A stretch of DNA of 64,000 nucleotides from Cristatella mucedo (Eukaryota > Bryozoa > Phylactolaemata > Cristatellidae), in contig WPIO01000003.1 in the NCBI GenBank assembly GCA_009760855.2, positions 8,516,001 through 8,580,000 of the forward strand, read 5' to 3'. Shown piece by piece: positions 30,301 through 33,300 of the stretch. The notes under the pieces are model-generated. The model worked only from the letters and a program-made list of their open reading frames with translations. It was not told the origin of the DNA and searched no databases. How positions within the stretch are numbered: the first letter of the stretch is position 1; the number at the start of each line of letters is the position of its first letter. The translations under genes were made by a program, and so were the position numbers.

Positions 30301-33300
30301 ACCGCATGACTCTCTGCAAGGAGAATATCGACTGATGCTAGCTCAGACTTCAGCTTCTCCATATCATCATTCAATTCATCGATGTGAGACTTCAGCCGAC
30401 GGTTTTCGGCCTCCAGCATTGTCAGCTCGCTTGATGATAGACCCTGAATAAGTATAAGAACCCAGTGAGTTGAAGAAACAGATGCACCTAGACCCCTTTC
30501 AAGAACTGAAAAACAGCTGCGATTGCAAATCGGCATGTACCATTGTATGTATATTTATAAAATATACTGGTAATGCTGAACGAGAAACTCAACTAAACGT
30601 ACACAAACAGTCGAGTAAACTATTCTAATTGTATACTATTCTGATGACAGCCATCAGTACCACAGCCAGTAGATCCCTTAAAGCCTGATTGGTAATTGCA
30701 CTCGAGTTTCTCTTTCACATTGGCATTCTCGTGCTTCTCCTCGCATTGTTTCGGAGGCCCTTGGTGCCAACCAACAGTGCAACAACGAGAAGGGTAAATA
30801 CATTATAAAGAAATAGACCAACAGTAAATATTAAATCTCGGTGCATAAAAACTCTTACAACAAAATTTTTGTCAGCCACTGTAGTGATTGCTTCTCCGTC
30901 TACTTCCTACCCTGGCGCTAGCCATCGGATCGAGTGAGCACAGCGTCCCTGTTGCTGGCCTCGAGCTGGGACATGGCCAAATCAGAGGCAAAGCATTCCT
31001 GCTGCTAGGCACGAGCCATGACGCTAGCCAATAGGAGCGCAGCATTCCTGTCAGTCGCAGACAACAGACGTTAGGATTAACGTTTGTACGCCAGTTGGAA
31101 ATACAAATTTTCCGAGCACTGTTTAGTACGAGTGTTCTAGAAAGTCGTTTGCTGTTTAGCAAGACGTTTACTCGCAACAACGGCACAGAGCAGCGGTTCT
31201 CAACCTGTGGGTCACGACCCCTTTGGATGTCGAACGACCCTTACACAGGGGTCGCCTAAGACCATCGAAAAACATGCATTTACACATTTCGCACACAATA
31301 ATTTTATGGTTGGGGGTCACCACAACATGAGGAACTGTATTAAAGGGTCGCGACATTAGGAAGGTTGAGAACCACTGGCATAGAGGATATGTCAGTGATA
31401 GACTGGGCTGTCAATCTCACTCACCGCATGATCTGAAATTCGACACTCATTTTCGACAGCAGCAAGATCGCGCTTGAGCATCTCTATTCTCACGGCATTT
31501 TCATTAAGTTCTCCTCTCAGCTGAACATTCTCAGTGTGGCCCATCGATAGTTTGACGTTGATCTCGTCCTAAGGCATTGAATCAGCAGGTAAGAAAAGTA
31601 AATCCAATGCGACACGAACTTAACACGCCCAGAGGTGAACCGACATACCAGCTGGTCAGTAGCTTGAGTTAGTCTGTCCTCTAAGCATGTCTTCATTTTA
31701 TAAGCATCTTCGAGATCATTGCGAAGCTTGCTAATAACACCCTGATGATCCAAATCCTTGAACGAAATCAGAGTTGGTGTTATAGACGGTAGGTGAGAAG
31801 ATGCAGCAACAGCTGCAACAGAAGCAAAGCTATACCAATAGAAGCACACGAAATCGTACCCTTGTGCTGCTGGCAGTTTGTATGTCATTGAGTTGGCACC
31901 GCAGTCGCTCGACCTCAAGGTCATGCTCTTGCAATGCTGCTCGCAGTCTGACTTGTTCGTCGGCAGCCAACGACAAGCTACGTTCGGTTTCTTGCTGCAA
32001 GAAGTAAACAGATCAACATACCCAGCAAGAAAATTATAGTAGCCCTCAATATAAATCAAGTTGATTTCGATGAAATGCCAGAGATTTTGATTAACGATAC
32101 CAGTAAGAACCAAGGACATCAGCCATAGAAATGGATGCTGAAATACGGGGGAGAGAGAATGGGAGAAAAAGAGATGGAAAGATATAGACAACACACCAAC
32201 AAACAGAGTGAGAGATAACGAAAGTCTCTCACATACCATTTGCTTGGTGATCACCTCATTCATCTCTTCAATCTGAAGCTTAGCAGCTTCTTCGGCCCTC
32301 AAAGCACATTGGAGTTCGTTGATGATATTTTCTGAAGCTTCGAGTTTTGACTTCATTTCGATCTATATAGTGTAAATCAACGCAAATCAGAGATGATCAT
32401 ATGAGTAACAGTACCAATACCACCCATTTGCAACTACTCCATGCCTGTCTATTTCACCATATATACATATATATATATATATCTATATATATATATATAT
32501 ATATATATATATATATATATATATATCCACAATGAGATTTCATGCATGTATGCAATATCTAAACATGTATTCAAATACGTGCAGAACAAAATACTTTATC
32601 GAGAACGAGCTAAGATCAAAATTGTACGAAGAATATTATTATCTGTAATTATGGAAAGAATTTTAGAAGACAAGTGCCACTACAGCAGAAAGGATTTTTA
32701 ACTGGAGAGATGAGCATCAGATTACTGATACAAGCTCCAAGTGAAAATTCATACAAACACTCGCTTTATTTGACCAAACTAAGAAAATATGAACTATTAT
32801 GTGAGTTTGGTGTTTTTAGTATACGATACACCCTGGCGACACTATGGAACTGGTTTGTAAGAAAAGGTAAACGAACGTAAGTTGGTACTTGCCGGCCAAT
32901 TATATACAATTGCCAATGATCTAAACATGACAATCGACAGTACACTTGTTCTTTGGCCAGTAGTTAAAAGAACAAAAAGGTATATTTGCTAGCTGGAGAG
33001 ATCAGAAGGCAATGCCAGATATATGAGGAAGGAGAAAGAGAGAGAGAGAGAGAGAGAGAGAGAGAGAGAGAGAGAGAGAGAGAGAGAGAGAGAGAGAGAG
33101 AGAGAAGGGACAGAAGAGATTATTATTCTATGGGGCAAGGAAATTGTTCTCAAAACATTGTAGACACCCGGGCTGTTTTGGATCTTGAAACCCCAATGTG
33201 TATGCAAAATTTGTAGCTGACCCGTCAGTCGGATTCACCCAGCACCATTAGCATAAAACAGATGTAGTTCTAGAAAGGTAGAACGTGTGGTAGAGTTTCA

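What the first reader, a model, noticed from the sequence alone, without database searches (positions are those of the whole stretch)
31191..31377. SPIN-like hAT element in an invertebrate-type kinesin intron: candidate horizontal transfer
Seen: a 187 bp element with 16 bp terminal inverted repeats and an 8 bp target duplication differing at one base, intronic, intact from end to end. Known: SPIN (Space Invaders) elements are hAT transposons spread horizontally among tetrapods and a few invertebrates such as a triatomine bug and a pond snail. Ends and internal blocks agree with the SPIN consensus as I remember it. The near-intact state contrasts with the decayed LINEs around it, which suggests a younger insertion.
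Basis: partly seen in the sequence, partly recalled or inferred. Interest (0 to 1): 0.85.

Follow-up and report, generated by a model that had tools for sequence, protein, structure and literature searches.

The report
SPIN transposon in an invertebrate genome
A short piece of jumping DNA in this invertebrate genome belongs to the SPIN family, best known from mammals and reptiles, so it most likely arrived by transfer between unrelated animals rather than by descent; this adds one more host to a known pattern.

Summary
31191-31377 is a 187-bp non-autonomous hAT element with 16-bp terminal inverted repeats (15/16 paired) and an 8-bp target duplication with one mismatch. It lies 47 bp inside an intron of a CENP-E-like kinesin gene. 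Its family is large: a 41-base piece of the 3' end occurs at 815 places in the 572-Mb genome within 3 mismatches, against 0 for the reversed pattern. Of 40 copies, 29 keep an 8-bp duplication, consensus CTCTAGAG. The 40-copy consensus agrees with the ends of mammalian SPIN as I recall it (85/85 and 80/81). A second test used recalled SPIN interior, 147 bases of which the window element lacks: it found at least 40 places, up to 93% identical, best E 4.5e-58. Mitochondrial code and gene clusters point to a lophotrochozoan; species unknown. Horizontal transfer is inferred. Mean divergence of about 9% (rough fit) says that the wave is not very recent. No autonomous copy was found. SPIN in tetrapods, Rhodnius and snails is known, so this is a new host of a known family.

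The parts
31191..31377 (+). 187-bp non-autonomous SPIN (hAT) element; orientation arbitrary, chosen so that the end with the recalled SPIN 5' sequence comes first
31191..31206 (+). left terminal inverted repeat CAGCGGTTCTCAACCT
31362..31377 (-). right terminal inverted repeat AGGTTGAGAACCACTG (15 of 16 paired with the left one)
31183..31190 (.). left target site duplication GCACAGAG
31378..31385 (.). right target site duplication GCATAGAG (form nnnTAnnn; one mismatch to the left copy)
31425..31568 (-). coiled-coil exon of the kinesin gene just upstream (in gene direction) of the intron that holds the element; donor GT begins at 31424
62780..63490 (-). open frame holding kinesin motor exons of the same-strand gene, best PDB match CENP-E; that it is one gene with the exon at 31425-31568 is inferred from strand and coiled-coil exons between them

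Best explanation
The element is a miniature SPIN transposon. A SPIN element, a hAT transposon of the Buster group, entered this lophotrochozoan lineage horizontally. Its transposase, acting in trans on internally deleted copies that keep about 85 bp and 81 bp of the ends, spread at least two non-autonomous forms by cut-and-paste: the common 187-bp form and a rarer form of roughly 300 bp with the mammalian-type interior. They went into nnnTAnnn sites, and one copy landed in a kinesin intron, where it is most likely neutral. Shown here: anatomy, copy number, TSD type and presence of the recalled interior. Inferred: transposase source, horizontal entry, Buster membership and lack of effect on the gene. 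Donor and direction are unknown.
For: TIRs and TSD in the window. 29 of 40 copies with an 8-bp TSD of at most 2 mismatches, random expectation 0.4%; consensus CTCTAGAG, central T and A each 27 of 29. Consensus of 40 copies equals the recalled mammalian SPIN ends at 85/85 and 80/81, better than the window copy does (79/84 and 80/81). Recalled SPIN interior finds at least 40 places, 83-93% identity over 126-167 query bases, best E 4.5e-58; only 22 of its 169 bases occur in the 187-bp form. One such place lies 14 bases from a listed 3' end, the distance expected. 815 and 348 places for 3' and 5' ends, 0 in reversed controls. Published SPIN in Rhodnius and SPIN-like hAT in Biomphalaria show that such hosts occur.
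Against: The SPIN reference is from memory; no library copy was available, and scans of 5 viral-contig and 2 genome-contig patterns found no other SPIN sequence to compare. No SPIN transposase was found: none of 138 hAT dimer-domain matches lies within 14 kb of the 200 listed ends, though only 100 of 815 and 100 of 348 places were listed and 150 of 766 candidates scored. 11 of 40 copies show no clear TSD. Divergence relative to host genes was not measured.
Confidence: 0.9

Rival explanations
1. It is a native hAT/Charlie-like miniature element of the host lineage that shares only the short terminal motif with SPIN.
For: Many hAT elements share the terminal motif CAGTGGTTCTCAA (recalled). The comparison with SPIN ends rests on memory.
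Against: Agreement runs over 166 terminal bases, not 16, and recalled interior that the window element lacks is present in the genome at up to 93% identity.
Confidence: 0.06
2. Assembly chimera or vertebrate contamination brought a SPIN copy into an invertebrate contig.
For: Vertebrate genomes carry many SPIN copies (published examples).
Against: 815 and 348 dispersed places for the two ends; the 100 listed 3' ends lie on 57 contigs and the 40 aligned copies on 31; TSDs show insertion into local DNA; mitochondrial code 5; the recalled-interior copies differ from the recalled mammalian sequence by 7% or more.
Confidence: 0.02
3. SPIN was inherited vertically from the bilaterian ancestor in both lineages.
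For: Patchy occurrence could in principle be loss.
Against: Copies lie about 9% from their consensus (rough fit) and interior copies are up to 93% identical to the recalled mammalian sequence. Non-coding DNA apart for over 500 million years would not be alignable (general knowledge).
Confidence: 0.01

Closest known systems
Non-autonomous SPIN (SPACE INVADERS) elements of mammals and other tetrapods (Pace et al. 2008; recalled, paper not held)
   Same: Terminal 85 and 81 bp as recalled, TIRs, 8-bp TSD, and the interior of a longer form as recalled.
   Different: The common 187-bp form has about 21 bp between the two ends instead of the recalled 145-bp interior; the host is an invertebrate.
SPIN of the bug Rhodnius prolixus (PMC11614815, passages seen)
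   Same: SPIN in an invertebrate, regarded as horizontally acquired.
   Different: Arthropod host; sequence not compared here.
SPIN-like hAT of the snail Biomphalaria glabrata, about 1,000 copies (PMC5440852, passage seen)
   Same: Lophotrochozoan host, similar copy number, no intact transposase reported there.
   Different: Host here may not be a mollusc (not proven); sequence not compared.
SPIN elements of the western painted turtle, 385 copies (PMC4054807, passage seen)
   Same: Same family, moderate copy number.
   Different: Vertebrate host; sequence not compared.

Membership tests
hAT superfamily (non-autonomous member) | 8-bp target site duplication | tested here: met
   29 of 40 copies with at most 2 mismatches
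hAT superfamily (non-autonomous member) | short terminal inverted repeats of about 15 bp | tested here: met
   16 bp, 15 paired
hAT superfamily (non-autonomous member) | mobilised by a hAT transposase | not testable with these tools
   needs an assay; no linked transposase seen
Buster group of hAT | target duplications of form nnnTAnnn (recalled criterion) | tested here: met
   central T and A 27 of 29 each
SPIN | terminal sequences of the SPIN consensus | tested here: met
   85/85 and 80/81, but against a recalled consensus
SPIN | interior sequence of non-autonomous SPIN | tested here: met
   not in the 187-bp form itself (22 of 169 bases), but in at least 40 other places of this genome, against a recalled sequence
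SPIN | autonomous copy with SPIN transposase in the same genome | tested here: inconclusive
   not found, with capped lists
Horizontally transferred transposon | divergence between hosts far below that of orthologous neutral sites | not tested
   no vertebrate copy or host orthologues could be compared; inferred

The most novel reading that the evidence does not exclude
The host is a lophotrochozoan outside Mollusca (for example a bryozoan, entoproct or nemertean), so SPIN has invaded an animal phylum not known to carry it, by a route that need not involve blood feeding or a trematode-snail cycle.
Probability: 0.45. Interest if true: 0.65.

Novelty: new member of a known kind. Interest (0 to 1): 0.45.

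Why it matters
SPIN is one of the best cases of DNA crossing between animal phyla. Each further invertebrate host, with its own age and its own set of forms, helps to test whether the spread went through parasites, shared water or viruses. A lophotrochozoan with on the order of a thousand copies, sharing even the interior of a mammalian non-autonomous form, is a useful data point. If the phylum is new for SPIN, it widens the host range beyond vertebrates, bugs and snails.

Tried and rejected
Flatworm host, my first guess: rejected, because COX1 reads ATA as Met (9 of 11) and AAA as Lys (2 of 2), code 5. Vertebrate contamination: rejected. The abundant hAT family as the SPIN helper: not supported, no SPIN end nearby among those listed. 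A search of paper texts for SPIN end sequences found none. Papers searched for a 572-Mb genome did not name the host (listings seen), and Discradisca antillarum, checked in passages, does not fit (308.7 Mb, GC 36%). The SPIN papers of 2008 and 2012 are not held. No Rfam family in the window.

Full report
Observation. The 187-bp element at 31191-31377 is real. Its ends form the only inverted repeat of 12 nt or more in 31100-31480, 16 nt with one mismatch, and the flanks GCACAGAG and GCATAGAG differ at one base. It is the only such element in the window. It lies in an intron: a 48-codon coiled-coil exon on the minus strand ends at a GTGAGT donor whose G is at 31424, 47 bp from the element. The motor exon at 62780-63490 (minus) matches CENP-E best among solved structures (Pfam Kinesin). 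As a single strand the element folds better than all 200 shuffles (z -9.4), as expected for a TIR element with self-complementary subterminal stretches.

Family. The window lies in a 572-Mb genome of 688 contigs with no species name. A DNA search scored 40 of 2264 candidates; all 40 match over 181 to 187 of 187 bases at 90-100% and lie on 31 contigs. All 40 were fetched and aligned. 29 of 40 have an 8-bp TSD with at most two mismatches, where random flanks would give 0.4%; the TSD consensus is CTCTAGAG, central T and A each 27 of 29 in weighted counts. 11 of 40 show no clear TSD. Mean K2P to the consensus is 0.058, or 0.048 outside CpG, but this sample is biased towards copies close to the window copy. 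Two pattern counts avoid that bias in part: a 41-base piece of the 3' end (41 exact, 815 within three mismatches, reversed control 0) and a 49-base piece of the 5' end (6 exact, 52 with one, 348 within three, control 0). Both fit about 9% mean divergence, with about 1,640 and 980 copies, in a simple Poisson model. The model is rough: the two copy numbers differ, and for the 5' end it predicts 12 exact matches against 6 seen. Of the listed 5' and 3' places, 10 pairs lie within 5 kb of each other, all 121 to 132 bases apart as in the 187-bp form. A sample of 20 stretches of 10 kb held no copy. The window copy differs from the consensus at 10 of 187 bases, so it is not a very recent insertion.

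Identity. No reference library of repeats was available, and SPIN ends were found in none of the viral or prokaryotic contigs scanned with exact patterns. I therefore compared with the mammalian non-autonomous SPIN consensus as I recall it. It was typed after the 40-copy consensus had been seen, so the end comparison is not blind. The genome consensus agrees at 85 of 85 and 80 of 81 terminal bases; the window copy agrees at 79 of 84 and 80 of 81. A stricter test used 169 recalled bases of the SPIN interior; only the last 22 of them occur in the 187-bp form, so the other 147 had not been seen in any output. This query found at least 40 places (123 first-look candidates, 40 scored), 83-93% identical over 126 to 167 query bases, best E 4.5e-58. 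One of them lies 14 bases from a listed SPIN 3' end, the distance in the recalled sequence. A two-anchor pattern found 33 exact short forms and one exact long form, whose place lies 10 bases from a listed 3' end. So the genome holds a common 187-bp form and a rarer longer form with mammalian-type interior. A recalled sequence is only a lead, but one that predicts unseen DNA in this genome is strong evidence.

Host. The mitochondrial contig C688 (21,008 bp) carries COX1 with code 5: ATA aligns to Met at 9 of 11 places, TGA to Trp at 13 of 15, AAA to Lys at 2 of 2. This speaks against vertebrates, flatworms, echinoderms and tunicates. The cluster nad1-P(opposite)-nad6-cob-S2-T(opposite)-nad4L-nad4-H-nad5, with tRNAs as ARAGORN calls them among 44 partly doubtful predictions, and the series cox3-K-A correspond to the order tabulated for the nemertean Lineus viridis (PMC2728741, passages seen), so the host is probably a lophotrochozoan; protein genes were named by eye except COX1. 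nad2 and cox2 and rrnL lie on the other strand, unlike Lineus. Neither the mollusc haemocyanin domain nor any tyrosinase was found. The tool warns that no control genome rang for these two, and the kinesin control that I asked for did not complete, so absence is not proven. If it holds, a mollusc is unlikely. The species remains unknown.

Mechanism. Non-autonomous hAT elements move by cut-and-paste with a transposase supplied in trans, leaving 8-bp duplications; this is established knowledge of the superfamily (8-bp TSDs and about 15-bp TIRs also stated in PMC11008031, passages seen). The nnnTAnnn duplications fit the Buster group (recalled). No SPIN transposase was found. Of 766 hAT dimer-domain candidates 150 were scored and 138 matched; none of the 138 lies within 14 kb of the 200 SPIN ends that were listed, but these are 100 of 815 and 100 of 348 places. 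Horizontal entry is inferred: non-coding DNA this similar between a lophotrochozoan and mammals cannot be vertical.

What is known. SPIN in Rhodnius (PMC11614815, passages), SPIN-like hAT in Biomphalaria with about 1,000 copies (PMC5440852, passage) and 385 SPIN elements in the painted turtle (PMC4054807, passage) are in print; Lymnaea is recalled, and squamates were seen as a statement in PMC11008031 (passage). In the listings of searches I saw no title or abstract start reporting SPIN in a lophotrochozoan other than snails; most subscription papers are not held. The finding is a new host for a known family, more interesting if the host is not a mollusc.

Noticed in passing
G000, e.g. C110:3941640-3941876 (minus), C19:1010804-1011040 (plus), C661:48878-49114 (plus): An apparently young hAT family: 55 places share the same dimer-domain score (76.8 bits), 15 of them in open frames of 635-642 aa. 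Not near any listed SPIN end.
   Followed up: partly
G000:C688 (L033, L034, L047): Mitochondrial contig of 21 kb with genes on both strands and a 2.1-kb stretch present twice in tandem at 100% identity; could be real or an assembly effect.
   Followed up: partly
L030 (G000:C166:4375626-4376390), L031 (C83:3121-3735), L032 (C549:2641741-2642010): Further COX1-like stretches on other contigs with in-frame stops besides TGA in L031; likely nuclear copies of mitochondrial DNA or divergent sources.
   Followed up: no
window 49196-49546 (+), 43142-43474 (-): Fragments of non-LTR reverse transcriptase; the first matches RVT_1 below the Pfam cut-off, the second has a similar YADDT motif by eye but no Pfam match.
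   Followed up: partly
G000:C653:10034890 and 10088814; G000:C44:5033953 and 5034234: Two SPIN copies 54 kb apart share the same private change, probably a segmental duplication; two other copies lie head to head within 300 bp.
   Followed up: no
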